From a virus: 30,092 bases of DNA. The position numbers and the translations under genes are program-made. The notes beneath the pieces were generated by a model. That model searched no databases. It worked only from the letters and a program-made list of their open reading frames with translations, and was not told where the DNA came from. The stretch is from positions 1 through 30,092 of IMG/VR virus record IMGVR_UViG_3300027902_000023; one strand, 5' to 3'. This document shows positions 1,387-10,408 of this stretch, piece after piece (position 1 is the stretch's first letter; every line of letters begins with the position of its first letter).

Positions 1387-1463
1387 CCGGAAAGAGCCCT
1401 ACTGGAAAGGGCATATGGTTGAAGGCCATATCGTTGAGGGTTCGAGTCCCTTTTTCCGGTCCA
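1387..1463 (+). tRNA. tRNA-Phe (GAA)
   Basis: Acceptor CCGGAAA/TTTCCGG, D-stem GCCC/GGGC, anticodon stem TATGG/CCATA with loop TTGAAGG, T-arm GAGGG-TTCGAGT-CCCTT, CCA encoded. Position 8 is G instead of the usual T, and the discriminator is T rather than the A typical of Phe tRNAs. First gene after the array promoter. Confidence 0.93.
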
Positions 1464-1476
1464 AAATATTTAGAAA

Positions 1477-1820
1477 GGGGCTGACAGGAATCGATTGAGG
1501 CAAAATGGTTTAGAGTTGCAAGCGGAGTACCAAAACTCCTAAAAAGTTGGAAAACAATAAATGCAGAACAAGAATTTCTTTTAGCTGCTTAAAACAGCTA
1601 AACGAGCATCATTAAGGTTCCTACACTTTTTAATGCTCGCCATTTAGTAGGATAAGTTTATAGTAAATGGATGTAACTATAAAACAAAAATAACATCCTA
1701 TAAGATAAAGTGGTAATTTTAAGAACCATTTTATATGAAAAGTTGTAAATCTTAAAATAAGCTTGTAGATACTTTAGATTAAGTTGCAGCAAGACGCGGG
1801 TTCAATTCCCGCCAGCTCCA
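1477..1820 (+). ncRNA. ssrA: tmRNA (transfer-messenger RNA)
   Basis: The 5' end GGGGCTGACAGGAATCGA and 3' end GACGCGGGTTCAATTCCCGC-CAGCTCCA form the alanine-type tRNA-like domain of bacterial tmRNA (GGGGCTG pairs with CAGCTCC; T-loop TTCAATT). Length is about 344 nt, close to the bacterial norm. A short frame at 1563-1592 encodes AEQEFLLAA and TAA; if resumption is one codon earlier the tag is NAEQEFLLAA. The tag ends in LAA, the usual ClpXP degradation signal. CCA is only partly encoded (A-CA-T). It sits 13 bases after tRNA-Phe in the promoter-proximal part of the array. Host tmRNA frees ribosomes stalled on messages without a stop codon; a phage copy would support or replace that during infection. 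Confidence 0.95.
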
Positions 1821-1830
1821 CATAATTTAA

Positions 1831-1904
1831 CGGGGTGTAGCGCAGTTTGGTAGCGCGTCTGCTTTGGGAGCAGGATGCCGGAGGTTCAAATCCTCTCACC
1901 CCGA
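1831..1904 (+). tRNA. tRNA-Pro (TGG)
   Basis: Acceptor CGGGGTG/CACCCCG, D-stem GCGC/GCGC, anticodon stem TCTGC/GCAGG with loop TTTGGGA, T-arm GGAGG-TTCAAAT-CCTCT. CCA is not fully encoded (A then CAT). Begins 10 bases after tmRNA. Confidence 0.95.
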
Positions 1905-1911
1905 CATTTTT

Positions 1912-1985
1912 CAGGGAGTAATGTTTAACGGTTAGCATCCTACGTCTGGAGCGTAGTAGTTGGGGTTCGAATCCCCATTCCCTGA
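1912..1985 (+). tRNA. tRNA with anticodon TGG by position (Pro?), atypical C33
   Basis: Acceptor CAGGGAG/TTCCCTG, D-stem ATGT/GCAT, anticodon stem CTACG/CGTAG, T-arm TGGGG-TTCGAAT-CCCCA, discriminator A. The seven-base loop is TCTGGAG, placing TGG at 34-36 but C at position 33, where U is almost universal. A shifted reading (CTG) would need a broken stem. Identity is therefore uncertain; a complete cloverleaf otherwise. Confidence 0.75.
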
Positions 1986-1999
1986 CATCAAAATTATAT

Positions 2000-2071
2000 T
2001 GCGGGAAGGCCGGTGCCTGGCCGAGTCTCATAAGCTTGGATTGGTAGGATCAACACCTACTCCCGCTACCA
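2000..2071 (+). tRNA. tRNA-Met (CAT), initiator-like
   Basis: Acceptor GCGGGA/TCCCGC preceded by an unpaired T1-T72, reminiscent of the 1:72 mismatch of bacterial initiator tRNA. Anticodon stem CGAGT/GCTTG with loop CTCATAA; T-stem GTAGG/CCTAC with the odd loop ATCAACA; CCA encoded. The D-arm is unusually compact, the molecule is short (72 nt), and the three G-C pairs typical of the initiator anticodon stem are missing. It could be initiator Met or a degenerate CAT tRNA. Confidence 0.75.
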
Positions 2072-2081
2072 AAAAATTTAT

Positions 2082-2156
2082 GGCTAAGTAACTCAGTTGA
2101 AGAGTACCTGTTTCATAAGCAGGAAGTCGAGAGCTCAATCCTCTCCTTAGCCCCCA
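2082..2156 (+). tRNA. tRNA-Met or tRNA-Ile2 (CAT)
   Basis: Acceptor GGCTAAG/CTTAGCC, D-stem ACTC/GAGT, anticodon stem CCTGT/GCAGG with loop TTCATAA, T-stem GAGAG/CTCTC, CCA encoded. The T-loop is CTCAATC, with C instead of T at position 54. CAT tRNAs may be elongator Met or, after lysidine modification of C34, Ile reading AUA; sequence alone does not decide. Confidence 0.9.
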
Positions 2157-2179
2157 GTTTTTAATATGGAGAACTGAAA

Positions 2180-2404
2180 ATGGATTCTTGTAAAAGTTGT
2201 AGATCATTAGAGAGTTGTTTTGATGGAATTCATGATGAAACATGGTGGTGTAAAAAATTGAATGAGGCACTTGGAATATTAGAGATACCTTACAAATGGA
2301 ATGAAATAAAATTTAGTATACATGATCTTGATTTCAAATGTTGTTTTTATGAAAGAAGCTTATATGGAGATGCTGCTGAGACGGTGGACAGCACCAGTCT
2401 GTAA
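2180..2404 (+). CDS. Small Cys-rich protein (74 aa) running into tRNA-Tyr
   Basis: Product MDSCKSCRSLESCFDGI... has CxxC and further Cys and His residues that could bind zinc, and a WWC motif. GGAGAACTG precedes the ATG at 2180. Its stop TAA (2402-2404) lies inside the anticodon loop of tRNA-Tyr, which begins at 2366, so the last dozen codons are tRNA sequence. RNase P cleavage would leave a message without a stop codon. No family recognised. Confidence 0.6.
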   Translation: MDSCKSCRSLESCFDGIHDETWWCKKLNEALGILEIPYKWNEIKFSIHDLDFKCCFYERSLYGDAAETVDSTSL

Positions 2405-2455
2405 AACTGGAAGCCTAAAAACTCGTTGGGGGTTCGAATCCCTTCATCTCCTCCA
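2366..2455 (+). tRNA. tRNA-Tyr (GTA), long variable arm
   Basis: Acceptor GGAGATG/CATCTCC, D-stem GCTG/CAGC, anticodon stem CCAGT/ACTGG with loop CTGTAAA, a class II variable arm, T-stem GGGGG/CCCTT with TTCGAAT loop, CCA encoded. Position 8 is C and the discriminator is T, both unusual for Tyr. Confidence 0.93.
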
Positions 2456-2468
2456 TTAAAATAGTTAT

Positions 2469-2542
2469 TCCGAGGTCCTTCAATGGTAGGAGAGGTGACT
2501 GTTAATCACTCAATGGAAGTTCAATTCTTCCTCTCGGAGCCA
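2469..2542 (+). tRNA. tRNA-Asn (GTT)
   Basis: Acceptor TCCGAGG/TCTCGGA, D-stem CTTC/GGAG, anticodon stem GGTGA/TCACT with loop CTGTTAA, T-stem GGAAG/CTTCC with TTCAATT loop, discriminator G and CCA encoded. Follows tRNA-Tyr by 13 bases. Confidence 0.95.
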
Positions 2543-2550
2543 AAATATAT

Positions 2551-2626
2551 GGTGATTGTAACCTAACGGTCAAGGTACTGGTCTGTGAAACCAGGTAAGA
2601 GCGTTCAATTCGCTCCTTTCACCCCA
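2551..2626 (+). tRNA. tRNA-His (GTG) with G-1:C73
   Basis: An extra G (2551) faces discriminator C73, the hallmark of tRNA-His. Acceptor GTGATTG/CTTTCAC contains two T-T mismatches. Anticodon stem CTGGT/ACCAG with loop CTGTGAA; T-stem GAGCG/CGCTC with TTCAATT loop; CCA encoded. Confidence 0.93.
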
Positions 2627-2636
2627 AAATAATTAT

Positions 2637-2710
2637 TCTCCTTTCGTCTAATGGTAAGACAGAGGTCTTTGAAGCCTCGAATCTGAGTTCGATTCTTAGA
2701 AGGAGATCCA
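2637..2710 (+). tRNA. tRNA-Gln (TTG)
   Basis: Acceptor TCTCCTT/AAGGAGA, D-stem GTCT/AGAC, anticodon stem GAGGT/GCCTC with loop CTTTGAA, T-loop TTCGATT, CCA encoded. Nearly identical in its middle to the next tRNA, from which it differs mainly in the acceptor stem and one anticodon base. Confidence 0.96.
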
Positions 2711-2716
2711 AAATAT

Positions 2717-2790
2717 TCGCTCTTCGTCTAATGGTAAGACAGAGGTCTCTGAAGCCTCGAATCTGGGTTCGATTCCTAGAGGGCGAACCA
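2717..2790 (+). tRNA. tRNA-Gln (CTG)
   Basis: Acceptor TCGCTCT/AGGGCGA, anticodon stem GAGGT/GCCTC with loop CTCTGAA, T-loop TTCGATT, CCA encoded. A tandem duplicate of the Gln(TTG) gene six bases upstream that has switched wobble base, so the pair reads both CAA and CAG. Confidence 0.96.
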
Positions 2791-2813
2791 AAAAATTTTA
2801 TTGGAGAAATTTG

Positions 2814-2945
2814 ATGAAGGTAACTATAAAAAATTTGAAAATAGATTCACCAATTGATGATGATATTAAAATTGATTTATTAGAGTTTGAAGGATCAGAA
2901 AATGAATTTAAAACTTTATGTGAAGATTTAGGAATAAAAAGATAA
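2814..2945 (+). CDS. Small acidic protein (43 aa)
   Basis: Product MKVTIKNLKIDSPIDDDIKI..., ending LCEDLGIKR. TTGGAGAAA lies at the right distance before the ATG. It fills the gap between tRNA-Gln and tRNA-Ser, and its codon use matches its neighbours. No family recognised. Confidence 0.55.
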   Translation: MKVTIKNLKIDSPIDDDIKIDLLEFEGSENEFKTLCEDLGIKR

Positions 2946-2951
2946 AATTAT

Positions 2952-3035
2952 GGAGAGGGGCGCGAATGGTGAACGGATAGTTTGCTAAACTATTGCCCGA
3001 AAGGGTAGCGGGGTCAGTACCCGCTCTCTCCGCCA
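2952..3035 (+). tRNA. tRNA-Ser (GCT)
   Basis: Acceptor GGAGAGG/TCTCTCC with discriminator G, anticodon stem ATAGT/ACTAT with loop TTGCTAA, variable arm closed by CCC/GGG, T-stem GCGGG/CCCGC, CCA encoded. The T-loop GTCAGTA lacks T54, and position 8 is G. Confidence 0.93.
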
Positions 3036-3047
3036 TAATAAAATAAA

Positions 3048-3410
3048 ATGAAACATGATCCTAACATTGGATTTAAAGATGGTACTAGAACCATTTGGAA
3101 TAAAGGTTTAACAAAAGAAACAGATGATAGGGTTAAGAAAATATCGAAAAAAGTAGGAGATGCATTAAGGGGTAAAAAGCAATCTTTCAAAGCTATAGAA
3201 GCACAAAAAAGAGGAATGAGGTTATCAGAGATAGTAGGAGGATATAGAGAAGGATCAGGAAGAGGAAAAAAGTTCAAAGTTTTTGATTCATATAATAATA
3301 GAGTTTGTTTGCAATCATCTTATGAATTATATGTTTCTGAAATATTAGATAGGTTAAATATTAAATGGATAAGACCAAAATATTTGATTTATATAGTAGA
3401 AAAAAGATAA
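3048..3410 (+). pseudogene. Remnant of a phage homing-endonuclease gene (EDxHD/VSR-like family?)
   Basis: The 120-aa reading frame contains IWNKGLTKETDDRVKK, typical of DNA-binding modules of phage homing endonucleases. This is followed by GGYREGSGRGKK and SSYELYVSEILDRLNIKW, which resemble the start of the EDxHD (very-short-patch-repair-like) nuclease domain. The usual C-terminal continuation of the nuclease domain is missing: the frame stops after YLIYIVEKR, and no other frame restores a convincing end. There is no ribosome binding site. I read it as a truncated, probably inactive gene left in the tRNA array. Family assignment is from memory of motif style. Confidence 0.6.
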
Positions 3411-3441
3411 AGAGAAGATACAATTGGTGAAAGAACAAAAT

Positions 3442-3540
3442 ATGATTACATTATTTATTTTATCTGAGAATCTTATTACTTGTGATTATATAAAGAAAAT
3501 ATGCCGGGATAGTTCAATTTCTGGTAGAACGGTGGACTGA
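3442..3540 (+). CDS. Possible 32-aa ORF ending in tRNA-Ile
   Basis: Product MITLFILSENLITCDYIKK... with a GGTGAAAG-like ribosome binding site. Its TGA (3538-3540) lies in the anticodon loop of the tRNA that begins at 3503. It is short, so it may be chance or decayed sequence from the endonuclease remnant upstream. Confidence 0.3.
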   Translation: MITLFILSENLITCDYIKKICRDSSISGRTVD

Positions 3541-3580
3541 TAATCCATTAATAGTGGTTCGACTCCACTTCTCGGTACCA
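3503..3580 (+). tRNA. tRNA-Ile (GAT)
   Basis: Acceptor GCCGGGA/TCTCGGT, D-stem GTTC/GAAC with a long D-loop, anticodon stem GTGGA/TCCAT with loop CTGATAA, T-stem AGTGG/CCACT with TTCGACT loop, discriminator A, CCA encoded. Confidence 0.95.
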
Positions 3581-3605
3581 AAAATATAGATCTTGAGGAT
3601 AGACG

Positions 3606-3673
3606 CTGGATATCGTCTAATGGTAGGACTCCGGCAATAGTCGGCAATATGGGTTCGAGTCCCATTATCCAAG
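3606..3673 (+). pseudogene. tRNA remnant with damaged anticodon arm
   Basis: The sequence keeps a near-complete acceptor (TGGATA/TATCCA), D-stem GTCT/GGAC and a good T-arm (ATGGG-TTCGAGT-CCCAT). The anticodon arm is too short (CCG-GCAATAGT-CGG), so total length is only about 68 nt and no anticodon can be assigned. CCA is absent. Directly after it, 3674-3695 is a palindromic T-arm-like sequence (around GAGTTCGAATTC), perhaps from a second lost tRNA. Bases 3700-3809 hold no gene that I can support; an 11-base direct repeat (TCGTGAAATCC) occurs at 3708 and 3781. Confidence 0.6.
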
Positions 3674-3809
3674 TAGTGGAGTTCGAATTCCACTATTTAG
3701 GAACATTTCGTGAAATCCCTCAATTGTAGATAGACAGGAGATTCCGTTCTTGATCGGTCCGGAATTGAATGGAACGTTACTCGTGAAATCCTACAACAAC
3801 TTTTTAAAT

Positions 3810-3905
3810 GGAGAGTTAACCATAACAGAGCAATGGCCTGGTCCAGAAAATCAGTTAGGTTGCCTAATAAGCGCCATGTGGGTTCGAATCCCTCACTCTC
3901 CTCCA
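3810..3905 (+). tRNA. tRNA, long variable arm, anticodon AGA by position (Ser?)
   Basis: Acceptor GGAGAGT/ACTCTCC with discriminator T, anticodon stem CTGGT/ATCAG, class II variable arm (TTAGG/CCTAA), T-loop TTCGAAT, CCA encoded. The loop CCAGAAA places AGA at 34-36 with C at position 33. An A34 serine tRNA is rare in bacteria, and Ser tRNAs usually carry G73, so both identity and function are uncertain. The T-stem has one mismatch. Confidence 0.65.
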
Positions 3906-3918
3906 TTTTTGAATATGA

Positions 3919-4062
3919 ATGAAAGATATTACTAATTTTTTAATTGAAGCTATTAGAAGTTCGAATAGAAGATTTGTCAGAAAAAAAGTGAGAGAAGAGT
4001 ATAATATCTGGAGGGTAGCGTCCGTGGGGACAGGTGGCTTTGAATACCACCGCCGGCAATAG
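3919..4062 (+). CDS. Possible 47-aa ORF ending in tRNA-Ser
   Basis: Product MKDITNFLIEAIRSSNRRFVRKK... is basic and reads like real coding sequence up to about residue 31 (base 4009). After that it is tRNA sequence, and the stop TAG (4060-4062) is in the variable arm of the next tRNA. No clear ribosome binding site. Confidence 0.35.
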   Translation: MKDITNFLIEAIRSSNRRFVRKKVREEYNIWRVASVGTGGFEYHRRQ

Positions 4063-4092
4063 CTGAAGGTTCGACTCCTTTGCTCTCCGCCA
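4010..4092 (+). tRNA. tRNA-Ser (TGA)
   Basis: Acceptor GGAGGGT/GCTCTCC with discriminator G, long variable arm, T-arm TTCGACT, CCA encoded. The anticodon arm is GTGGC-TTTGAAT-ACCAC, giving TGA with T33 but a C31-A39 mismatch next to the loop. Together with Ser(GCT) it covers most serine codons. Confidence 0.88.
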
Positions 4093-4122
4093 TTAATTTT
4101 CATTAAGGAGATTGTATGTGTA

Positions 4123-4293
4123 ATGATCATAAACTTTATACCAATGGCCTTAGTGATAAGTATTTCTTTATATATAATAAAGAAAGATATTGAGACAATA
4201 ACATGGTTTAAGATATTTTCACCTTTTTTGATTTTAGGTTTTATAGAAATTTTGATATTGGTTTTTGATCAAAAACATAAGCTTAGTTGGTAG
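4123..4293 (+). CDS. Small membrane protein (56 aa) ending in tRNA-Cys
   Basis: Two hydrophobic segments (FIPMALVISISLYII and IFSPFLILGFIEILILVF) predict a two-helix inner-membrane protein. AAGGAG (4105-4110) lies 12 bases before this ATG and 5 bases before an out-of-frame ATG at 4116 that opens a 25-codon ORF. Either or both may be translated. The stop TAG (4291-4293) is inside the D-arm of tRNA-Cys. Function unknown. Confidence 0.5.
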   Translation: MIINFIPMALVISISLYIIKKDIETITWFKIFSPFLILGFIEILILVFDQKHKLSW

Positions 4294-4356
4294 ATTGGCG
4301 CATGCGACGGTCTGCAAAACCGTAGAAGATGGGTTCGATTCCCTCACTAAGCTCCA
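4281..4356 (+). tRNA. tRNA-Cys (GCA)
   Basis: Acceptor GCTTAGT/ACTAAGC, anticodon stem ACGGT/ACCGT with loop CTGCAAA, T-loop TTCGATT, discriminator T (the normal Cys identity base), CCA encoded. Confidence 0.95.
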
Positions 4357-4383
4357 TATATTAAATTGAAAAGGAGGAGTAAA

Positions 4384-4887
4384 ATGAAGATTAGTTCAAG
4401 TTCATGGCATTTCAGATTGTGGGCGTATAGACAGAAATTTTTTAGTGGTGATAGTGATGATAGAATTAGGCACCATTCACTTCAGTTGACTTTATGTAGT
4501 TATTTTTGGTCAGTAATTTGGACAATTTGGGTATTTTTCTTCTTTTATGCAATTAGAGTTCCACTAGGTTATATTTTTGGTTTAAGATGGGTTAAAGGAG
4601 AGCATGAATTTATTTTGAAAAATAAAATTCATGCTATATGTGTAGTAGTTTTTCTACTCTTAATGCCAACGTTTATAGCAATTCTTAATCCAAAGGTAAC
4701 ACCTGTTGCATTAACTACTTTGTTTATCTATTTCATAATTGGTGTAATAGTTGCATTAGAAAAGCTTAAAATGTATTTGAATTTATATCCAAGAAAAGAA
4801 GATAGTTTCTATAATGTAACAAAAGAATTTATCAAAGCAAAGAAAGCAAAAGTTTGTCCTAATATAGAAGTTATTTTTCCAAAATAA
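4384..4887 (+). CDS. Membrane protein (167 aa), phage-type
   Basis: I chose the ATG at 4384 because AAGGAGGAG lies 5-13 bases upstream; an in-frame TTG at 4366 has no such site. The N-terminus MKISSSSWHFRLWAYRQKF followed by LCSYFWSVIW resembles small membrane proteins I have seen in large phages. Three to four transmembrane segments are visible: at about residues 45-70, at 85-110 (AICVVVFLLLMPTFIAIL), and at 115-135. The tail is basic and cytoplasmic. Function not known. Confidence 0.75.
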   Translation: MKISSSSWHFRLWAYRQKFFSGDSDDRIRHHSLQLTLCSYFWSVIWTIWVFFFFYAIRVPLGYIFGLRWVKGEHEFILKNKIHAICVVVFLLLMPTFIAILNPKVTPVALTTLFIYFIIGVIVALEKLKMYLNLYPRKEDSFYNVTKEFIKAKKAKVCPNIEVIFPK

Positions 4888-4889
4888 GA

Positions 4890-4918
4890 TTGACTTTTGA
4901 ATAGAAATAAATTATATT
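4890..4918 (+). promoter_or_regulatory. Promoter before tRNA-Asp
   Basis: TTGACT (4890-4895), 17-base spacer, TATATT (4913-4918). Five of six matches in each hexamer. The tRNA begins 8 bases later, so this probably refreshes transcription of the middle of the array. Confidence 0.75.
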
Positions 4919-4925
4919 AAAAGTT

Positions 4926-5002
4926 GGGTACGTAGCATAATTGGTCAGTGTGCTTCCCTGTCACGGAAGAAGGTACCGGTTCGAATCCGGCCGTACCCGC
5001 CA
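4926..5002 (+). tRNA. tRNA-Asp (GTC)
   Basis: Acceptor GGGTACG/CGTACCC with discriminator G, anticodon stem CTTCC/GGAAG with loop CTGTCAC, T-loop TTCGAAT, CCA encoded. First tRNA after the promoter at 4890. Confidence 0.96.
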
Positions 5003-5014
5003 TAAATAAACAAC

Positions 5015-5091
5015 GGCCTACTACCCCAACTGGTAGAGGGAGTGGACTTAAAATCCATAAGTTCCCGGTTCGAATCCGGGGTAGGCTACCA
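5015..5091 (+). tRNA. tRNA with Leu anticodon TAA on a short-variable-arm body
   Basis: Acceptor GGCCTAC/GTAGGCT, anticodon stem GTGGA/TCCAT with loop CTTAAAA, T-arm CCCGG-TTCGAAT-CCGGG, discriminator A, CCA encoded. The variable loop is only five bases (AAGTT), whereas bacterial tRNA-Leu is class II with a long variable arm. One of four related tRNAs with leucine anticodons and this class I shape. Confidence 0.9.
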
Positions 5092-5115
5092 AAAATAATT
5101 GAAGGAGATTGTTAT

Positions 5116-5325
5116 ATGAAATGTCAGTGTTGTAATAAGAATAGAAAATCTCCTAGAAATGCAGTTGTTAGAACTGAGCAAAACAATTTTATTCTATGTG
5201 GTATATGTAGTAATGCTATACATATAAGCAAGAATATTATTTTTGGAATTATGAATAAAAATGTAGATTGGGATTTTCTTATGACATCTACTAAAAAAGA
5301 TTTTGAGAAAGGATTTATAAAATGA
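5116..5325 (+). CDS. Small zinc-ribbon-like protein (69 aa)
   Basis: Start at 5116 is set by GAAGGAGATT upstream; longer readings run back through tRNAs. Product MKCQCCNKNRKSPRN... has CxCC near the N-terminus and CGIC at about residues 36-39, a likely four-Cys zinc site. The last four bases overlap the next gene (ATGA), so the two are translationally coupled. Function unknown. Confidence 0.65.
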   Translation: MKCQCCNKNRKSPRNAVVRTEQNNFILCGICSNAIHISKNIIFGIMNKNVDWDFLMTSTKKDFEKGFIK

Positions 5326-5942
5326 TATTGCTACTTGTTTTGTTTCTTTTATTTAATGTTTCAATAAGTGAAGCACAAATAATAACAAATGAAGTAGTAA
5401 CAAGTGAAACAGTAACAAGTGAACCAAACCCTTTTGGAAGGGTGATAATTAAACATCCAACACCAGATATAACAGTTTATTATCCAGATCCAGAATTAAC
5501 ACCTGGTGTAGTAGATGAAAAAGTTACACAAGATAATTTAAAAGAAACAATTTGTGTATCTGGGTTTACAGCAACTGAAAGAGTAAACCAAACTTCCACA
5601 TTTAAGAAACAAGTTTTTGAGAGATATGGAATTGATTGGAGTCTACATAAACAGTTTGAAGATGATCATTTTTTATCACTTGAAGATGGAGGCAAAGACG
5701 GAGATTTAAATAATAGGTGGCCTCAATATTATTGTCCCAAAGCAACGGCAGGTAAAACTTGTTTCGGCGCAAGGGAAAAAGATGTTTGCGAAACTAATTT
5801 ACATAAAAGAATTTGTGATGGTAAAATGACATTGAAAGAAGCGCAAGAAATTATTATAACAGATTGGTTTATGGAATATTTAAGGATAAAAAGAATTGAT
5901 AGTTTATTAAGCCGCCCCATTAGCTCAACGGATTCAGAGTAA
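5322..5942 (+). CDS. Exported HNH-like nuclease-fold protein (206 aa)
   Basis: Residues 1-19 are a signal peptide (MILLLVLFLLFNVSISEAQ). After a linker, residues about 118-190 carry FEDDHFLSLEDGGKDGDLNNRWPQ, then GAREKDVCETNLHKRICDGK and TLKEAQEII-TDW. This matches my memory of secreted bacterial HNH-like proteins (DH-P-LGG ... NLWPQ ... AKEKDxxEN-LH-VC-G-LxLxxAQ). Export implies action in the periplasm, for example on incoming DNA, although the catalytic set is not fully canonical (DDHF for DHL/I). The stop TAA (5940-5942) falls inside tRNA-Arg, which begins at 5914, so about nine C-terminal residues derive from tRNA sequence. Starts within the previous gene (ATGA overlap). Confidence 0.75.
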   Translation: MILLLVLFLLFNVSISEAQIITNEVVTSETVTSEPNPFGRVIIKHPTPDITVYYPDPELTPGVVDEKVTQDNLKETICVSGFTATERVNQTSTFKKQVFERYGIDWSLHKQFEDDHFLSLEDGGKDGDLNNRWPQYYCPKATAGKTCFGAREKDVCETNLHKRICDGKMTLKEAQEIIITDWFMEYLRIKRIDSLLSRPISSTDSE

Positions 5943-5990
5943 GAGGCTTCTACCCTCCATGAGCCAGTTCGACTCTGGCATGGGGCTCCA
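5914..5990 (+). tRNA. tRNA-Arg (TCT)
   Basis: Acceptor GCCCCAT/ATGGGGC, D-stem GCTC/GAGT, anticodon stem AGAGG/CCTCC (A27-C43 mismatch) with loop CTTCTAC, T-loop TTCGACT, CCA encoded. Reads AGA, a common codon in this AT-rich window. Confidence 0.93.
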
Positions 5991-6036
5991 TATTTTAAAA
6001 GGAACTGAGTATAAAATTACAGCTTAAAAATAAAAT

Positions 6037-6113
6037 GCGTCTGTAGCCCAACTGGTAGAGGCAGTTGCCTCAAAAGCAGCGTGTTGGTGGTTCGAATCCA
6101 CTCAGGCGCACCA
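6037..6113 (+). tRNA. tRNA with Leu anticodon CAA, short variable arm
   Basis: Acceptor GCGTCTG/CAGGCGC, anticodon stem GTTGC/GCAGC with loop CTCAAAA, five-base variable loop GTGTT, T-arm GGTGG-TTCGAAT-CCACT, discriminator A, CCA encoded. Shares its D-arm (CCCAACTGGTAGAGG) with the TAA and AAG tRNAs, showing common descent. Confidence 0.9.
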
Positions 6114-6123
6114 TAAAAATTAT

Positions 6124-6200
6124 GGCTCTGTACCCCAACTGGTAGAGGGAGCTGGCTAAGAACCAGTATAGTAGGAGTTCAAATCTCCTCAGGGCTACCA
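6124..6200 (+). tRNA. tRNA with Leu anticodon AAG, short variable arm
   Basis: Acceptor GGCTCTG/CAGGGCT, anticodon stem GCTGG/CCAGT with loop CTAAGAA, variable loop ATAGT, T-arm AGGAG-TTCAAAT-CTCCT, discriminator A, CCA encoded. A34 in a leucine anticodon is very unusual in bacteria, where A34 (inosine) is mostly limited to Arg(ACG). Confidence 0.9.
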
Positions 6201-6205
6201 AAAAT

Positions 6206-6355
6206 ATGAAAAAGATACTAACAGAAGAAGAGTTTTTAGAAATTTTTGGAAAACCATTTGATGAACAAGAAACAAAGATTAATGTTCTAAAAATAGAATA
6301 TTTTGGATGTTCATTATGGTTTGTAAGAATAAATGCTCCGGAAGCATTACGGTAA
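6206..6355 (+). CDS. Small unrecognised protein (49 aa)
   Basis: Product MKKILTEEEFLEIFGKPFDEQ... ends ...INAPEALR. It starts 5 bases after the tRNA CCA, and no ribosome binding site is visible in the short spacer. Its 3' end lies in the palindrome GCATTACGGTAATGC. The following 6360-6494 has no supported gene, though an open stretch (FDKEQNKINLIIVDKDHLSW) without a normal start suggests a decayed related ORF. Confidence 0.45.
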   Translation: MKKILTEEEFLEIFGKPFDEQETKINVLKIEYFGCSLWFVRINAPEALR

Positions 6356-6494
6356 TGCACTCGGCCTTTATTTTTAAAAATATAAATAATTTATTTGGAT
6401 ACAAAAAAATGACTATTTGATAAAGAACAAAATAAAATAAATTTGATCATAGTTGATAAAGATCATTTGAGTTGGATGAAAGTAAAAGAATTAA

Positions 6495-6571
6495 GCCCTT
6501 TAAACATTTAATTGGATGATGCCTGGTCCTGTAAACCAGTGAAGATGGTTCGATTCCATCAAAGGGCTCCA
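6495..6571 (+). tRNA. tRNA-Thr (TGT), C33
   Basis: Acceptor GCCCTTT/AAAGGGC, anticodon stem CTGGT/ACCAG with loop CCTGTAA, T-arm GATGG-TTCGATT-CCATC, discriminator T, CCA encoded. Position 33 is C and position 8 is A; the D-stem is weak. It complements Thr(GGT) at 10906. Confidence 0.85.
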
Positions 6572-6580
6572 AAATTAAAT

Positions 6581-6653
6581 GGGGCGCTAGCTCATTCAGG
6601 AGAGCACCTGGCCTGCACCCAGGAGGCGGTCGGAGCAAAGCCGACGCGCTCCA
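6581..6653 (+). tRNA. tRNA-Ala (TGC), C33
   Basis: Acceptor GGGGCGC/GCGCTCC, D-stem GCTC/GAGC, anticodon stem CCTGG/CCAGG with loop CCTGCAC (C33), T-stem GTCGG/CCGAC with the non-canonical loop AGCAAAG. CCA is not encoded in full (A then CAT, as in the tmRNA). Only alanine tRNA of the set. Confidence 0.85.
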
Positions 6654-6682
6654 CATCAAAAATCTTTTCTATAAATAGTTAT

Positions 6683-7228
6683 ATGGAAAAGTTGAAATAT
6701 ACAATTTATCAAGTAACAAATTTGATTAATAGTAAGTTTTATGTTGGAATGCATCAAACAAAGAACCTAAAAGATGGTTATATGGGTTCTGGTAAATATT
6801 TAAGAAGAGCTATTTCAAAATATGGAATAGAGAATTTTAAGAAAGAAATTTTATGGTTATGTGATTCTTTTGAAGAAATGAAGGAATTTGAAAAAGGAAT
6901 CATTACAGAAGAATTTCTTGAACAGAATAAAGAAAATACATATAATCTATTAGTTGGTGGCAAGGGTGGATTCTATTATGTAAATAAGGAAGGGTTACAA
7001 CTTGATAACTTCTATAAAAATTTAGATAAGGAAGAAATATTATTACATAGACAGAATGGGGGATATGCTTCATCAAACAGATCAAAAGTAGTTATAACTA
7101 GAATAAGTGATAAAGTAAAAAATTACTATAAAACACATAACGGAACTTTCAAAGGTAAAAAACATACTGAGGAAGCAAAACAAAAAATGAAACGGAATAA
7201 TATACATAATAGGAATAAAATTACTTAG
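6683..7228 (+). CDS. GIY-YIG homing endonuclease (181 aa)
   Basis: The N-terminus has the GIY-YIG core: YTIYQVTNLINSKFYVGMHQT, then GYMGSGKYLRRAISKYGIENF and a catalytic-type Glu in KGIITEEFL. The C-terminus contains FKGKKHTEEAKQKM, a NUMOD3-type DNA-binding helix, and then ends soon after, shorter than many relatives. The ATG at 6683 begins the conserved domain; earlier in-frame starts lie in tRNA sequence. This is a free-standing selfish nuclease of the Seg type, inserted between tRNA-Ala and a small gene. Such enzymes cut phage genomes that lack them and promote their own spread. Confidence 0.85.
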   Translation: MEKLKYTIYQVTNLINSKFYVGMHQTKNLKDGYMGSGKYLRRAISKYGIENFKKEILWLCDSFEEMKEFEKGIITEEFLEQNKENTYNLLVGGKGGFYYVNKEGLQLDNFYKNLDKEEILLHRQNGGYASSNRSKVVITRISDKVKNYYKTHNGTFKGKKHTEEAKQKMKRNNIHNRNKIT

Positions 7229-7233
7229 AAAAA

Positions 7234-7383
7234 ATGTTATATTTTTGTACAAAGTGTCACGAAACGTGCAATTTAGAAAAACATATTGATCCATACAAGT
7301 TTATATGTGAAGATTGCAAAAGAAAGATAGATGCCTCTGTACCCCAATTGGTAGAGGGTTCTGGCTTAGAACCAGATAGTTAG
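7234..7383 (+). CDS. Small zinc-ribbon protein (49 aa) ending in a tRNA
   Basis: Product MLYFCTKCHETCNLEKHI...FICEDCKRK has CxxC twice, a likely zinc ribbon. The tRNA begins at 7333, so about the last 16 codons are tRNA sequence, and the stop TAG is at 7381-7383. No clear ribosome binding site. Confidence 0.5.
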   Translation: MLYFCTKCHETCNLEKHIDPYKFICEDCKRKIDASVPQLVEGSGLEPDS

Positions 7384-7409
7384 GAGTTCGAATCTCCTCA
7401 GGGGCACCA
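7333..7409 (+). tRNA. tRNA with Leu anticodon TAG, short variable arm
   Basis: Acceptor GCCTCTG/CAGGGGC, anticodon stem TCTGG/CCAGA with loop CTTAGAA, five-base variable loop, T-arm AGGAG-TTCGAAT-CTCCT, discriminator A, CCA encoded. Fourth member of the class I leucine-anticodon group. Confidence 0.92.
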
Positions 7410-7412
7410 AAA

Positions 7413-7487
7413 GGGCTCATAACTCAACGCGTAGAGTAGCTGGCTTTTAACCAGTAAATCGGGGTTCGACTCCCCGTGAGCCCACCA
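7413..7487 (+). tRNA. tRNA-Lys (TTT)
   Basis: Acceptor GGGCTCA/TGAGCCC, D-stem ACTC/GAGT, anticodon stem GCTGG/CCAGT with loop CTTTTAA, T-arm CGGGG-TTCGACT-CCCCG, discriminator A, CCA encoded. Only three bases separate it from the previous tRNA. Confidence 0.96.
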
Positions 7488-7495
7488 TAAAAAAA

Positions 7496-7617
7496 TTGAC
7501 TATACCGACACCTGGGTGTGGGGTCAAGGAAATGGAGGTCAATTTCTACCAAAGCGGTAGCAATCTCCATGGAGACTCAAGTGGTGTGACGCAAGGCTGA
7601 GAGGGGCCGAACCATTT
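7496..7617 (+). ncRNA. Candidate structured RNA between tRNA-Lys and small genes
   Basis: A GC-richer, ORF-free stretch with several helices: TTGAC/GTCAA (7496-7500 with 7523-7527), GAAAT/ATTTC (7529-7533 with 7542-7546), CTACC/GGTAG (7546-7560) and TCTC/GAGA around CATG (7564-7575). ACACC (7508-7512) could pair with GGTGT (7583-7587) to close the whole. The 3' part has GGCTGAGA (7595) and GAACC (7609), words found in TPP riboswitches, but the rest of that consensus is absent. It could be a leader of the gene at 7637 or an independent RNA. Confidence 0.45.
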
Positions 7618-7636
7618 TTATATATGAAGGAGTGAA

Positions 7637-7777
7637 ATGATGTTAAAACTAACTCATAAAAGACCTTGTTCAGAAACAAAAGAACATTTTATTGCTACGA
7701 ATGAAAAAGAAACTCATTATTGGTGTTTAATATGTGCAAAAGAATTGAATAAGGATGGTACAGAGAAGAAATGTTGA
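7637..7777 (+). CDS. Small His/Cys-containing protein (46 aa)
   Basis: GAAGGAGTGAA precedes the double ATG at 7637. Product MMLKLTHKRPCSETKEHF...HYWCLICAKEL contains CxxC with nearby His and Cys residues, suggesting metal binding. Its stop overlaps the start of the next ORF (ATGTTGA), so the two are probably translationally coupled. Lies downstream of the structured stretch at 7496-7617. Confidence 0.6.
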   Translation: MMLKLTHKRPCSETKEHFIATNEKETHYWCLICAKELNKDGTEKKC

Positions 7778-7950
7778 AAATAGATGATGAAACAAAAGCA
7801 ATTGTAAATGATATGAAAAAGAGATGTTTTTATTTTAAAAATGAAAAATGTTTTCATAAGCATAGAAAGATGTACTGGTTTATAAAACCGTTGTGTGATA
7901 GATCATACCATACTCCATGTATGTATTTTAAAGTTAAAGCGCGCCTGTAG
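7771..7950 (+). CDS. Small Cys/His-rich basic protein (59 aa) ending in tRNA-Lys
   Basis: Product MLKIDDETKAIVNDMKKRCFY... has four Cys and four His residues (KCFHKH, PLCDRSYHTPC), a possible zinc-binding fold. Start overlaps the previous stop. The TAG stop (7948-7950) is exactly T8-A9-G10 of the tRNA-Lys that begins at 7941, so the conserved tRNA core supplies the stop codon. Confidence 0.6.
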   Translation: MLKIDDETKAIVNDMKKRCFYFKNEKCFHKHRKMYWFIKPLCDRSYHTPCMYFKVKARL

Positions 7951-8016
7951 CAAAGAGGCTAATGCATCTGACTCTTAATCAGAAGATCGTCGGTTCGACT
8001 CCGACCAGGCGTACCA
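7941..8016 (+). tRNA. tRNA-Lys (CTT)
   Basis: Acceptor GCGCCTG/CAGGCGT, anticodon stem TCTGA/TCAGA with loop CTCTTAA, T-arm GTCGG-TTCGACT-CCGAC, discriminator A, CCA encoded. Reads AAG, complementing Lys(TTT). Confidence 0.96.
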
Positions 8017-8041
8017 TATAAATATTTTTGGAGGGTGAGTT

Positions 8042-8227
8042 ATGGTGATAACAGAAGAAATTGTAAAAAAGAGATTAACTGATTTATTGAATGAATGTTT
8101 AGAATCTGCTAATCAAGAACATTCATTTGTAGTTAAAAAGGTTGATTTAGTAAATAAAAAATTCTTAGTAGAATTTGATATAGTCGAAGTACCTGAAGAT
8201 GACTATATTGGATTTCAAGGTTATTAA
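8042..8227 (+). CDS. Small acidic protein (61 aa)
   Basis: TTGGAGGGTGAGTT provides a good ribosome binding site. Product MVITEEIVKKRLTDLLNECL... is predicted helix then beta strands, ending IGFQGY. Not recognised. It ends four bases before tRNA-Val and does not overlap it. Confidence 0.65.
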   Translation: MVITEEIVKKRLTDLLNECLESANQEHSFVVKKVDLVNKKFLVEFDIVEVPEDDYIGFQGY

Positions 8228-8231
8228 AAAT

Positions 8232-8307
8232 GCATCATTAGCCATCTGGGGATGACCACCGCCCTACAAGCGGATGCAGCGGAGTCCGATTCTCCGATGA
8301 TGCACCA
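8232..8307 (+). tRNA. tRNA-Val (TAC), C33 and C55
   Basis: Acceptor GCATCAT/ATGATGC, T-stem CGGAG/CTCCG, CCA encoded, discriminator A. The anticodon stem CCGC/GCGG encloses loop CCTACAA, giving TAC with C33. The T-loop TCCGATT has C at position 55, and the D-stem has a C11-A24 mismatch. It is the only valine tRNA of the set. Confidence 0.85.
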
Positions 8308-8332
8308 AAAATAATTTGAGATATATAGTAAA

Positions 8333-8366
8333 TTTGATTCGTTAGGGGTAAAAAAGGAGAATCAAA
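8333..8366 (+). promoter_or_regulatory. Hairpin sequestering the ribosome binding site of the next gene
   Basis: TTTGATTC (8333-8340) is perfectly complementary to GAATCAAA (8359-8366). The second arm overlaps the AAGGAG site and reaches the A of the ATG at 8366. Forming this 8-bp stem would block initiation; translation could require a protein, temperature change or upstream translation to open it. Confidence 0.55.
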
Positions 8367-8620
8367 TGAGTAAACTATATATCCCTATTGGAAATATCAA
8401 GCATGGAGAAGAGATTCCAGGAAAAGTTGGCAGGTATTGTGAAGTACATCAAACAATACATGGTCGTTTTTATAGGTGTCATAAATACTCTGAAAAAATA
8501 AAAGAAGAAATTAAGAAAGAAGAAAGAAGACATTTAAATATAAGTTCTAGTATAGCAATTGTAATAATATTTGTAATTTTACTAACGATAGAAGTATTGA
8601 AATATAAACCGCCCCTGTAG
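8366..8620 (+). CDS. Tail-anchored small protein (84 aa) ending in tRNA-Arg
   Basis: Product MSKLYIPIGNIKHGEEI... has a Cys/His-containing soluble part (RYCEVHQTIHGRFYRCHKY) and a C-terminal membrane helix (SSIAIVIIFVILLTIEVL). The stop TAG (8618-8620) is T8-A9-G10 of tRNA-Arg(ACG). AAGGAG lies before the ATG but inside the hairpin at 8333-8366. The four Cys/His residues may bind zinc. Function unknown. Confidence 0.65.
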   Translation: MSKLYIPIGNIKHGEEIPGKVGRYCEVHQTIHGRFYRCHKYSEKIKEEIKKEERRHLNISSSIAIVIIFVILLTIEVLKYKPPL

Positions 8621-8687
8621 TTCAACGGATTAGAATGCTCGGCTACGAACCGGGAGGTTGCGGGTTCAATTCCTGCCAGGGGTACCA
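8611..8687 (+). tRNA. tRNA-Arg (ACG)
   Basis: Acceptor GCCCCTG/CAGGGGT, D-stem GTTC/GAAT, anticodon stem CTCGG/CCGGG with loop CTACGAA, T-arm GCGGG-TTCAATT-CCTGC, discriminator A, CCA encoded. A34 here is the usual substrate of bacterial TadA. Confidence 0.95.
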
Positions 8688-8715
8688 AATTTTGCAGGAG
8701 TGAGGAGTTTCAAAA

Positions 8716-9219
8716 ATGGATTGTTACGTATTGACAAATAGTTTTGAATACCATGACACAATCAAGTGGAAGACTGCGATGCAAATGTTGCACCGTGAGA
8801 GTCAACCAGTTGAAGTCATCCTATACTCTGATTATGAAATTAAGCCAGGTGTTTATGCACCAAAGGTTTTAAAGTTACACAGAGATGTTAGAAAGTACTA
8901 TGGGAAGAAAGTTCATTGGAGCCCAGAAAATCTTTTTAGCAGAGATGATTATACTTGTAAATATTGTGGTATAAAGATGGGCAGAAATGAATGTACTATC
9001 GATCATGTTATACCACAATGCAGAGGTGGAAAGACTGAATTTGATAACTGTGTTACCGCTTGTCATGATTGCAACAATAAGAAGGACAACAGAACACCTT
9101 CTGAAGCAAAGATGTATTTAAAGAAATTACCATATACTCCAACAATTATGGAATTTTTCAGAAAGAAAGTAAAGAGAGATGGAATTGTTGAAGTATTGAA
9201 AGAATTAGGTATTTACTAA
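8716..9219 (+). CDS. HNH endonuclease (167 aa)
   Basis: Residues about 75-130 form a classic HNH domain with a structural zinc site: CKYCG, then CTIDHVIPQCRGGKTEFDNCVTAC, then HDCNNKKDNRTPSEA. The catalytic DH and the downstream Asn are intact. AGGAGTGAGGAG gives a strong ribosome binding site. The N-terminal 70 residues are probably an additional DNA-interaction region. It is most likely a free-standing homing endonuclease in the tRNA array, although a host-DNA-degrading role is possible. Confidence 0.85.
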   Translation: MDCYVLTNSFEYHDTIKWKTAMQMLHRESQPVEVILYSDYEIKPGVYAPKVLKLHRDVRKYYGKKVHWSPENLFSRDDYTCKYCGIKMGRNECTIDHVIPQCRGGKTEFDNCVTACHDCNNKKDNRTPSEAKMYLKKLPYTPTIMEFFRKKVKRDGIVEVLKELGIY

Positions 9220-9231
9220 AAATTATTACAC

Positions 9232-9260
9232 TTGACTCTTGAAAAGAATTACTATATAAT
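9232..9260 (+). promoter_or_regulatory. Promoter before the lipoprotein gene
   Basis: TTGACT (9232-9237), 17-base spacer, TATAAT (9255-9260). The gene starts 20 bases downstream with GGAGGAAAG before its ATG. The transcript would continue into tRNA-Arg(CCT) and beyond. Confidence 0.85.
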
Positions 9261-9280
9261 AGCTCAAAAATGGAGGAAAG

Positions 9281-9637
9281 ATGAATAAATTGTTGTTAAT
9301 TTTGATTACTATTTTTGTGTTGGTTTCAGGTTGTGGCCCAACTTTAAACCAAACAATGAATTCACAAATGATTTCAAAAGGAACTACAACAAATTCTACA
9401 CCATATGAATGTATTATTATAGAGAATTCAAAAACAAGATGGAGTGCAATATCAAAATCACTTGCAGTAGTTGCACCATTAATTTCAGCAGCGGGTGTTA
9501 GTTGGGTAGCAGGAGCTATAGCTGGTGCTTGTTCCGTTGGTTCTGCTGTTATTGCAGATGGAAAAGTAACTGACTATCTTTTAATGGGTTGCCCTACTGT
9601 GGTGAGTACATCGACAGGAACGGTAATTTTGAAATAG
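9281..9637 (+). CDS. Lipoprotein (118 aa)
   Basis: A type II signal peptide (MNKLLLILITIFVLVSGC) with lipobox LVSGC predicts an envelope lipoprotein lipidated at Cys 18. The middle has a hydrophobic Gly/Ala-rich stretch (LISAAGVSWVAGAIAGACSV) that may insert into membrane. It has its own promoter. Plausible roles are superinfection exclusion or lysis control, but nothing in the sequence decides. The stop TAG ends at 9637, which is nucleotide 1 of tRNA-Arg(CCT), so RNase P would cut between A and G of the stop codon. Confidence 0.75.
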   Translation: MNKLLLILITIFVLVSGCGPTLNQTMNSQMISKGTTTNSTPYECIIIENSKTRWSAISKSLAVVAPLISAAGVSWVAGAIAGACSVGSAVIADGKVTDYLLMGCPTVVSTSTGTVILK

Positions 9638-9711
9638 CGCCATTAGCCTATCGGAGCAGGTACTGGTTTCCTAAACCAGTTAAACAGGTTCAACTCCTGT
9701 ATGGCGCACCA
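9637..9711 (+). tRNA. tRNA-Arg (CCT)
   Basis: Acceptor GCGCCAT/ATGGCGC, anticodon stem CTGGT/ACCAG with loop TTCCTAA, T-arm ACAGG-TTCAACT-CCTGT, discriminator A, CCA encoded. Third Arg tRNA; its G1 is also the last base of the upstream gene's stop codon. Confidence 0.95.
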
Positions 9712-9734
9712 ATTTATATTTGAGGTGCTAAAAT

Positions 9735-9875
9735 ATGTTAACAGAAGAAGAAAAAGCAGAATTAAAGCAAATTTTTCATGAACTTTGGACAAGAGATGTA
9801 GGCACAGAAGGATATGAAAAGAAAAAGTGGACAAAATTGGTCCAACTTTTAAAAGAAGAAAAAGTATATGTTTAA
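9735..9875 (+). CDS. Small charged helical protein (46 aa)
   Basis: Product MLTEEEKAELKQIFHELWTRD... is highly charged and probably one or two helices. TGAGGTGC lies about 8 bases upstream as a weak ribosome binding site. Not recognised. Confidence 0.55.
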   Translation: MLTEEEKAELKQIFHELWTRDVGTEGYEKKKWTKLVQLLKEEKVYV

Positions 9876-9883
9876 TACGTGGT

Positions 9884-9935
9884 CAGCGCGGATGCTGTTA
9901 AATGGCTCCTAGATCAGGGAGCAGCCTTAATTTTT
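9884..9935 (+). ncRNA. Two-hairpin element, possible terminator
   Basis: CAGC/GCTG (9884-9897) is followed by GCTCC/GGAGC (9905-9922). GGCT (9904-9907) could alternatively pair with AGCC (9923-9926). The T-rich tail at 9927-9935 fits a rho-independent terminator after the 46-aa gene, but tRNA follows directly at 9936, so read-through or processing must be possible. Confidence 0.4.
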
Positions 9936-10011
9936 GGGCTTGTAGTTCAACTGGTAGAACACCTTCCTCATAAGAAGACAGTTGATGGTTCGACTCCATT
10001 CAGGCCCACCA
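9936..10011 (+). tRNA. tRNA-Met or tRNA-Ile2 (CAT)
   Basis: Acceptor GGGCTTG/CAGGCCC, D-stem GTTC/GAAC, anticodon arm CCTTC-CTCATAA-GAAGA (C27-A43 mismatch), T-arm GATGG-TTCGACT-CCATT, discriminator A, CCA encoded. Third CAT tRNA; the three probably divide into initiator Met, elongator Met and Ile2. Confidence 0.92.
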
Positions 10012-10028
10012 ATTTTTTATAAGGAAAA

Positions 10029-10148
10029 ATGGAACAAGGTATTTCAACAATAGCGATATGTATACTGTCAGGTGTTGCTATAATTAAAAATTATCCAACA
10101 GTTGCATTTTGGATATTATTTATTGGAGTATTAGCAATTTGGAGTTAA
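10029..10148 (+). CDS. Single-helix membrane microprotein (39 aa)
   Basis: Product MEQGISTIAICILSGVAIIK... is almost wholly hydrophobic (ending VAFWILFIGVLAIWS), predicting one or two short membrane segments. AAGGAAAA precedes the ATG. It lies between tRNA genes without overlapping them. Function unknown. Confidence 0.55.
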   Translation: MEQGISTIAICILSGVAIIKNYPTVAFWILFIGVLAIWS

Positions 10149-10153
10149 AATAT

Positions 10154-10230
10154 AGGGGTATAGTGTTTAACGGTTAGCACGATGGCCTCCAAAACCACTA
10201 GTCCGGGTTCGATTCCTGGTACCCCTGCCA
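10154..10230 (+). tRNA. tRNA-Trp (CCA)
   Basis: Acceptor AGGGGTA/TACCCCT with discriminator G as in bacterial tRNA-Trp, D-stem GTGT/GCAC, loop CTCCAAA, T-arm CCGGG-TTCGATT-CCTGG, CCA encoded. The anticodon stem ATGGC/ACCAC keeps only three pairs, with A27-C43 and C31-A39 mismatches. Confidence 0.9.
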
Positions 10231-10240
10231 TTTTTATAGT

Positions 10241-10302
10241 AACCCTATGGTCGATAGTGGCGGAAGCTCTCCGGCCAATCTATCATAAAGGTTCCATAGG
10301 TT
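10241..10302 (+). ncRNA. Compact structured RNA, unidentified
   Basis: An outer helix AACC-CTATGG / CCATAG-GTT encloses GATAG/CTATC, then TGGC-GGA / TCC-G-GCCA capped by AGCTC. The whole element folds into one long bulged hairpin, has no ORF, and lies 10 bases after tRNA-Trp and 16 before the next tRNA. A T-rich tract follows. It may be a processing signal, terminator or small RNA; I know no match. Confidence 0.55.
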
Positions 10303-10318
10303 TTCATTTTTAATATAT

Positions 10319-10408
10319 GCGGGTATGACCGAGTGGTTTAAGGTACTTGGCTTCCACCCAAGGGGTGACGTAAGTTGCCCAGGGGTTCGAATCCCCTTAC
10401 CCGCTCCA
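10319..10408 (+). tRNA. tRNA-Gly (TCC) on a class II (long variable arm) body
   Basis: Acceptor GCGGGTA/TACCCGC with discriminator T, D-arm of the Leu/Ser type (TGACCGAGTGGTTTAAGG), anticodon stem CTTGG/CCAAG with loop CTTCCAC, a long variable arm (GGG...CCC), T-loop TTCGAAT, CCA encoded. The acceptor carries the known bacterial glycine identity set (G1-C72, C2-G71, G3-C70, U73, plus C35 and C36), while the body looks like a class II tRNA. Confidence 0.9.

What the first reader, a model, noticed from the sequence alone, without database searches (positions are those of the whole stretch)
5015..7409. Four leucine-anticodon tRNAs lacking the long variable arm of bacterial tRNA-Leu
tRNAs with TAA, CAA, AAG and TAG all have a five-base variable loop and share a D-arm (CCCAACTGGTAGAGG type) and A73. 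Bacterial tRNA-Leu is class II. These genes descend from one class I ancestor whose anticodon diversified over four leucine anticodons. Either they are charged with leucine despite lost class II shape, or they carry another amino acid and would mistranslate leucine codons.
Basis: partly seen in the sequence, partly recalled or inferred. Interest (0 to 1): 0.75.

Follow-up and report, generated by a model that had tools for sequence, protein, structure and literature searches.

The report
Phage leucine tRNAs without variable arm
This phage carries four leucine tRNAs that lack the long side arm textbooks give to bacterial leucine tRNAs; they keep every contact known to matter for E. coli leucine loading, and the same short form turns out to be common in phages and fixed in the chromosomes of some bacteria, so it is probably an overlooked but working version of tRNA-Leu rather than a mistranslating tRNA.

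Summary
Window tRNAs at 5015 (TAA), 6037 (CAA), 6124 (AAG) and 7333 (TAG) are intact 77-nt cloverleaves with a 5-nt variable loop, and no class II tRNA-Leu was found in the window. The premise "bacterial tRNA-Leu is class II" is not universal. All four carry the leucylation set known from E. coli (A73, A14, A15-U48, G18G19, A20a); published work says the arm is dispensable there. The same shape occurs in over 100 viral contigs, in phage KVP40, in 31 of 31 sampled Bifidobacterium genomes, and in Rhodobacter and Curtobacterium, where it is the only UUA-reading tRNA found. Across 199 distinct short-armed Leu tRNAs, A73 is kept in 198 and U48 in all 199, although neither was asked for in the search. 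Serine tRNAs from the same viral loci almost never lose the arm. Best reading: working leucine tRNAs charged by host LeuRS. Mistranslation has no support. Common descent of the four is shown only for AAG and TAG. Elsewhere the arm was plainly lost from class II tRNA-Leu; for the window's own subtype the origin is unresolved. Charging was not tested. The general point contradicts a 2023 review.

The parts
5015..5091 (+). tRNA-Leu(UAA), class I shape; variable loop 5059-5063 (AAGTT)
6037..6113 (+). tRNA-Leu(CAA), class I shape; variable loop 6081-6085 (GTGTT)
6124..6200 (+). tRNA-Leu(AAG), class I shape; variable loop 6168-6172 (ATAGT); 82% identical to the UAG tRNA
7333..7409 (+). tRNA-Leu(UAG), class I shape; variable loop 7377-7381 (TAGTT)
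1387..11058 (+). tRNA array holding the four genes: 29 tRNAs and a tmRNA by ARAGORN, further tRNA-like genes by Rfam and by eye

Best explanation
The four genes are working leucine tRNAs of a large tailed phage. The host leucyl-tRNA synthetase charges them because it reads A73, U8:A14, the A15-U48 pair, G18G19 and A20a, not the anticodon or the long variable arm. The arm is therefore free to be lost in tRNA-Leu, unlike in tRNA-Ser, and a short class I elbow serves instead. The four anticodons give the phage its own decoders for UUA, UUG and the CUN box. Shown here: the shape, the conserved identity set, the wide and Leu-specific occurrence, the status as only tRNA found for UUA in two bacterial chromosomes, and arm-loss pairs in other phages. 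Inferred: charging, use on the ribosome, and that the window's own subtype arose by arm loss.
For: All four carry U8, A14, A15, G18, G19, A20a, U48, A73. In E. coli A73, A15-U48, G18G19 and A20a are essential and variants without the arm remain active (PMC9976931). Over 199 distinct folded short-armed Leu tRNAs, U48 199/199, A73 198/199, U8 199/199, none of these positions fixed by the search pattern (A15, G18G19 and A20a were fixed). An independent set of 72 short-armed viral Leu tRNAs outside the pattern: A73 64, A15:U48 61. Full tRNA sets of Rhodobacter sp. KR11 and a Curtobacterium: five Leu tRNAs each, UAA the only short one and the only UUA reader found. 31/31 Bifidobacterium genomes hold one. 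Control: in viral loci Ser 114 long, 2 short; Tyr 45 long, 2 short; in loci fetched without regard to arm, Leu 6 short/23 long, Ser 0/33. Same-anticodon pair L103/L294 is 95% identical outside the arm. KVP40 tRNA-Leu-3 has the form.
Against: No charging data for any short-armed bacterial or phage tRNA-Leu were found. The host is unknown, and its LeuRS may lean on the arm more than that of E. coli; the same review's summary table lists a large variable region among bacterial Leu elements. Most relatives were fetched with a D-loop pattern that itself fixes A15, G18G19 and A20a, so only U48, A73, U8 and the anticodon context are free tests. The body outside the D-loop does not score closest to class II tRNA-Leu. 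The CUU codon test is weak (4 Leu, 4 Ile of 15). The Rhodobacter assembly is incomplete, so a second UAA gene cannot be wholly excluded.
Confidence: 0.87

Rival explanations
1. The tRNAs are charged with an amino acid other than leucine and cause phage-directed mistranslation of leucine codons.
For: Class I shape and A73 are shared with Ile, Val, Met, Ala, Lys and Phe tRNAs; outside the D-loop the bodies score about as near Lys, Ile or Arg profiles as class II Leu.
Against: None of the other A73 identity sets in PMC9976931 is met (no G3-U70 for Ala, no A35C36 for Val, no C34A35U36 for Met, no A35U36 for Ile, no U35 for Lys or Tyr). The full Leu set is present. Aligned homologues show Leu at TTA 25/59, TTG 11/23, CTA 6/10 (one protein counted twice). 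The short form is the only UUA decoder found in two free-living bacteria.
Confidence: 0.04
2. The genes are decoys, processing by-products or decaying pseudogenes of a mosaic tRNA array and take no part in translation.
For: The array holds several degenerate tRNA-like stretches (3606-3673, 1912-1986 with C33, 8230-8313 with C33); related phages differ in their tRNA sets.
Against: All four fold fully, keep U33, the T-loop TTCRA and encoded CCA, and all identity positions are intact in all four copies although the copies differ by 18-41%.
Confidence: 0.06
3. They are leucine tRNAs but the short shape is itself selected: it escapes host toxins or nucleases that recognise long variable arms.
For: Some toxins do read the variable arm: MenT3 loses activity on tRNA-Ser without it (PMC11541572). 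Arm loss is frequent in phage tRNA-Leu: about 16 of 120 contigs in a sample that admits both forms.
Against: The form is also fixed in bacterial chromosomes, where escape from the cell's own toxins is less obvious; known Leu-directed toxins were not examined; neutral loss explains the data as well.
Confidence: 0.12
4. The form arose by recruitment of a class I tRNA (Lys-, Ile- or Arg-like) that gained A15, A20a and U48, not by loss of an arm.
For: For A9-type short Leu tRNAs the nearest class II Leu and the nearest other isotype are about equally close (median 0.72 against 0.70); for the window's TAA and CAA genes another isotype is nearer.
Against: G9-type short Leu tRNAs are clear arm-loss derivatives (up to 95% identity to a class II Leu of the same anticodon), one A9-type (L057) is 84% identical to a class II Leu, and a relative of the window's phage (L508) has a short-armed Leu(CAA) with a class II D-arm where another relative (L506) has a long-armed Leu(CAA).
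Confidence: 0.35

Closest known systems
Class II tRNA-Leu of bacteria (for example E. coli tRNA-Leu)
   Same: Anticodons, A73, A14, A15-U48, G18G19, A20a, 3-bp D-stem with 11-nt loop AAYYGGTAGA, frequent G1-U72
   Different: No long variable arm; A9 in place of G9; D-stem of C-G pairs (NCC/GGN) in place of GYG/CRC
Short-armed tRNA-Leu in chromosomes of Bifidobacterium (CAA), Nocardioides, Curtobacterium and Rhodobacteraceae (TAA)
   Same: Same shape, A9, D-arm type, U48 and A73
   Different: Usually one gene per genome with one UUR anticodon, where the phage has four genes over both Leu boxes; sequences of the window genes are at most 72-78% identical to any short-armed Leu tRNA elsewhere
tRNA-Leu-3 (UAG) of Vibrio phage KVP40
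   Same: Class I shape, A14 A15, U48, A73, in a phage tRNA array
   Different: One extra base in the D-loop; known as an annotated gene only
Animal mitochondrial tRNA-Leu(UUR)
   Same: Leucine charged without a long arm, with A14 and A73 as main elements (PMC9976931)
   Different: Mitochondrial LeuRS, degenerate structure, different evolutionary setting
Short-loop tRNA-Leu(TAG) of mobile-looking tRNA clusters in Mycobacterium (PMC6582537)
   Same: A tRNA-Leu with a short variable loop in a tRNA gene cluster with an HNH endonuclease, noted in passing by the authors
   Different: Single anticodon; not pursued there as a general form
[quoted passage not shown]
   Same: Leu anticodon without the arm
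   Different: A tRNA-Met with a recent anticodon change and very low expression; the phage tRNAs carry the Leu set and score poorly as Met

Membership tests
Class II tRNA | Variable region of 10 or more nucleotides, usually a stem-loop | tested here: not met
   5 nt in all four
tRNA-Leu (functional isoacceptor family) | Anticodon reading UUR or CUN | tested here: met
   TAA, CAA, AAG, TAG
tRNA-Leu (functional isoacceptor family) | Discriminator A73 | tested here: met
   4 of 4; 198 of 199 in the whole set
tRNA-Leu (functional isoacceptor family) | U8:A14, A15-U48 trans-Levitt pair, G18G19, A20a (E. coli set, PMC9976931) | tested here: met
   4 of 4; literature
tRNA-Leu (functional isoacceptor family) | Charged with leucine by LeuRS | not testable with these tools
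   no experiment possible; indirect genetic evidence from relatives
tRNA-Leu (functional isoacceptor family) | Leu codons of the phage fall on Leu positions of homologues | tested here: inconclusive
   TTA, TTG and CTA favour Leu; CTT 4 Leu and 4 Ile of 15
Short-armed tRNA-Leu type of phages and Actinomycetota chromosomes | 5-nt loop ending in U48, A9, D-arm NCC-C-AAYYGGTAGA-GGN, A73 | tested here: met
Anticodon-shifted tRNA-Met, -Ile, -Val or -Ala | Identity set of the donor synthetase | tested here: not met
   3-70 is C-G or G-C, position 36 is A or G and no donor anticodon set is present; log-odds below the short-Leu profile with the full alignment
tRNA-Ser | Long arm and G73 | tested here: not met

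The most novel reading that the evidence does not exclude
Short-armed tRNA-Leu is a distinct, mobile tRNA type that phages favour because it stays a full LeuRS substrate while hiding from host toxins or nucleases that read the variable arm, and it has displaced the class II gene in several bacterial lineages.
Probability: 0.1. Interest if true: 0.8.

Novelty: new variant of a known kind. Interest (0 to 1): 0.52.

Why it matters
[quoted passage not shown] The searches here contradict that: the short form is common in phages and fixed in at least one bacterial genus. It is a natural test of the old finding that E. coli LeuRS does not need the arm, it bears on how tRNA class and identity evolve, and it warns that tRNA annotation which takes Leu to be class II will mislabel real tRNAs. 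KVP40-type phages and cultured bacteria offer ready test systems.

Tried and rejected
Megablast of the window against phage records found no close relative, only fragments. A scan for the window's exact AAG/TAG tRNA core in viral contigs gave nothing. Two phylum-wide draws with the strict pattern gave 6 of 296 and 1 of 299 genomes (the centre genome counted in each), so the strict form is rare overall and clustered in certain clades. Isotype log-odds meant to show descent from class II Leu did not: the bodies look like generic class I outside the D-loop, so I do not claim ancestry from that. A tree of 94 short-armed genes is poorly resolved. Three viral relatives of the 727-aa protein carry no tRNAs in the fetched flanks; in the two examined further the arrays lie elsewhere and hold mostly class II Leu. 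ARAGORN's start is one base early for some loci, which made some A73 counts look worse. Of seven phage records searched for Leu tRNAs (KVP40 and six found through homologues of the 727-aa protein), four gave pattern matches, none a short-armed Leu of the window's type; KVP40's own gene falls outside that pattern because its D-loop reads GGCAGA. Paper searches found no paper that treats the short form as general in bacteria; only open-licence papers are held, so this is weak evidence of novelty.

Full report
Setting. The window is a complete IMG/VR record of 30,092 bases, 33% G+C, a fragment of a tailed phage. It holds a tRNA array from 1387 to 11058 with 29 tRNAs and a tmRNA by ARAGORN, more by Rfam, then an RNA ligase-like gene, a 727-aa protein of unknown family phrog_33734, a T4 RNase H-type exonuclease and a nucleotide-sugar gene cluster. 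Distant kin of the 727-aa protein occur in large phages such as XacN1 and Weasels2 and in two 170-kb viral contigs. The host is unknown.

Observation. Four tRNAs with Leu anticodons (TAA 5015, CAA 6037, AAG 6124, TAG 7333) have 5-nt variable loops and are otherwise intact: 7-bp acceptor, U33, T-loop, encoded CCA. No tRNA-Leu with a long arm was found in the window. A pattern for this form matches four times where shuffles give none.

Identity. In E. coli, leucylation needs A73, the A15-U48 pair, G18G19, A20a and D/T-loop contacts; neither the anticodon nor the sequence or folding of the long arm matters, and minimal tRNAs without the arm stay active (PMC9976931, read; its table still lists a large variable region among bacterial Leu elements). 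All four window tRNAs carry U8, A14, A15, G18, G19, A20a, U48 and A73. The D-arm (3-bp stem, 11-nt loop with AAYYGGTAGA) has the architecture of class II tRNA-Leu (compare the class II genes). No other A73-type identity set of the same table is met.

Distribution. The bacterial ones are mostly single chromosomal genes in Actinomycetota (Bifidobacterium CAA, Nocardioides TAA or CAA, Curtobacterium TAA, Micromonospora and Salinispora CAA, Lentzea and Saccharothrix TAA) and in Rhodobacteraceae (TAA). All 31 sampled genomes of the Bifidobacterium genus have one. In phylum-wide draws the strict form is rare, 6 of 296 and 1 of 299 with the centre genome counted. In a viral sample that admits both forms, about 16 of 120 contigs have the short one. 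Phage KVP40 tRNA-Leu-3 has it, and similar genes lie in other KVP40-like phages.

Test of function by genetics. Full tRNA sets were recovered for Rhodobacter sp. KR11 and a Curtobacterium. Each has five tRNA-Leu genes, one per anticodon; four are class II and the UAA gene is short-armed. It is the only tRNA found that can read UUA, so it should carry leucine there. Caveat: the Rhodobacter assembly lacks some tRNAs (for example Tyr and Ile-GAT), so an unseen second UAA gene is possible.

Test of function by conservation. Over 199 distinct folded short-armed Leu tRNAs (the four of the window included), positions not fixed by the search are U8 199/199, U48 199/199 and A73 198/199. In 72 short-armed viral Leu tRNAs that do not match the fetch pattern, A73 is read in 64 and A15:U48 in 61, and some of the rest are frame shifts of the caller. 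Sequence elsewhere varies much more. I read this as selection for the LeuRS set.

Control. If loss is tolerated because LeuRS ignores the arm, serine tRNAs should keep theirs. In the viral loci Ser is 114 long and 2 short, Tyr 45 and 2. In loci fetched without regard to arm, tRNAs other than the fetched one are Leu 6 short and 23 long, Ser 0 and 33, Tyr 1 and 14. The Fisher test on Leu 16/123 against Ser 2/116 gives p about 0.001 (the two samples were not drawn in the same way).

Codons. Against solved homologues of three window proteins (four alignments, one protein used twice), TTA aligns to Leu in 25 of 59, TTG 11 of 23, CTA 6 of 10, CTT 4 of 15 with Ile also 4. No sign of reassignment for TTA, TTG and CTA; CTT is inconclusive.

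Origin. Some short genes are plainly class II tRNA-Leu with the arm removed: L103 and L294 (both UAG) are 95% identical outside the arm. Among distant relatives of this phage, L508 has a short-armed CAA gene with a class II D-arm, while L506 has a long-armed CAA gene. These keep G9. The window's subtype has A9 and a C-G-rich D-stem, and its nearest class II Leu and nearest other isotype are about equally close, so its origin is unresolved. AAG and TAG are 82% identical and share a strongly supported set; TAA and CAA are not closer to them than to outsiders; one clade for all four is not rejected (p 0.54) and not shown.

Conclusion. Working leucine tRNAs of a short-armed type, with charging inferred. 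Mistranslation is unlikely. The single case is ordinary for phages once the census is made; the general point is not in the papers I could search, apart from a passing remark on a Mycobacterium tRNA cluster (PMC6582537), and it contradicts the review statement that only animal mitochondria lack the arm (PMC9976931).

Noticed in passing
window 10319-10408: tRNA-Gly(TCC) has a class II shape (18-nt variable region) on a Ser-like D-arm but the full Gly set of E. coli: U73, G1-C72, C2-G71, G3-C70, C35 C36. The viral loci hold 28 other long-armed tRNAs outside Leu, Ser and Tyr, several Thr(TGT), Lys or Trp on Ser-like bodies. No match in phage records.
   Followed up: partly
window 2958-3034, 3810-3905, 4010-4092, 6581-6653, 8230-8313, 2002-2071: tRNA-like genes missed by ARAGORN, read by eye and partly by Rfam: Ser(GCT), Ser(AGA) with U73, Ser(TGA), Ala(TGC) with G3-U70, Val(TAC) with C33, and an fMet-like one.
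   Followed up: partly
window 1912-1986 and 8230-8313: tRNAs with C33 in place of U33 in the anticodon loop; possibly relevant to anticodon-nuclease escape.
   Followed up: no
window 6124-6200: Anticodon AAG is unusual for a bacterial-type Leu tRNA; A34 may need conversion to inosine or read CUU directly. CTT is a common Leu codon in the window (83 of 412 Leu codons).
   Followed up: no
window 1477-1821: Phage-borne tmRNA with tag AEQEFLLAA.
   Followed up: no
window 11716-12689: RNA ligase-like gene (phrog_548) apparently split over two open frames; only the C-terminal part of the profile matches in the second frame.
   Followed up: no
window 13072-15255: 727-aa protein of phrog_33734, unknown function, conserved at 24-50% identity in unrelated large phages.
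   Followed up: partly
window 12740-13030 and 7500-7620: Structured-looking non-coding stretches: an inverted repeat region with repeated CTTCCTTCTA, and a G-rich stretch after tRNA-Lys; neither matches an Rfam family.
   Followed up: no
L508: A distant relative phage has an 85-nt, long tRNA-Asn(GTT), another class II shape on a class I anticodon.
   Followed up: no
L095 and L080: The only two short-armed Ser-anticodon tRNAs in the viral set; L095 carries A73.
   Followed up: no
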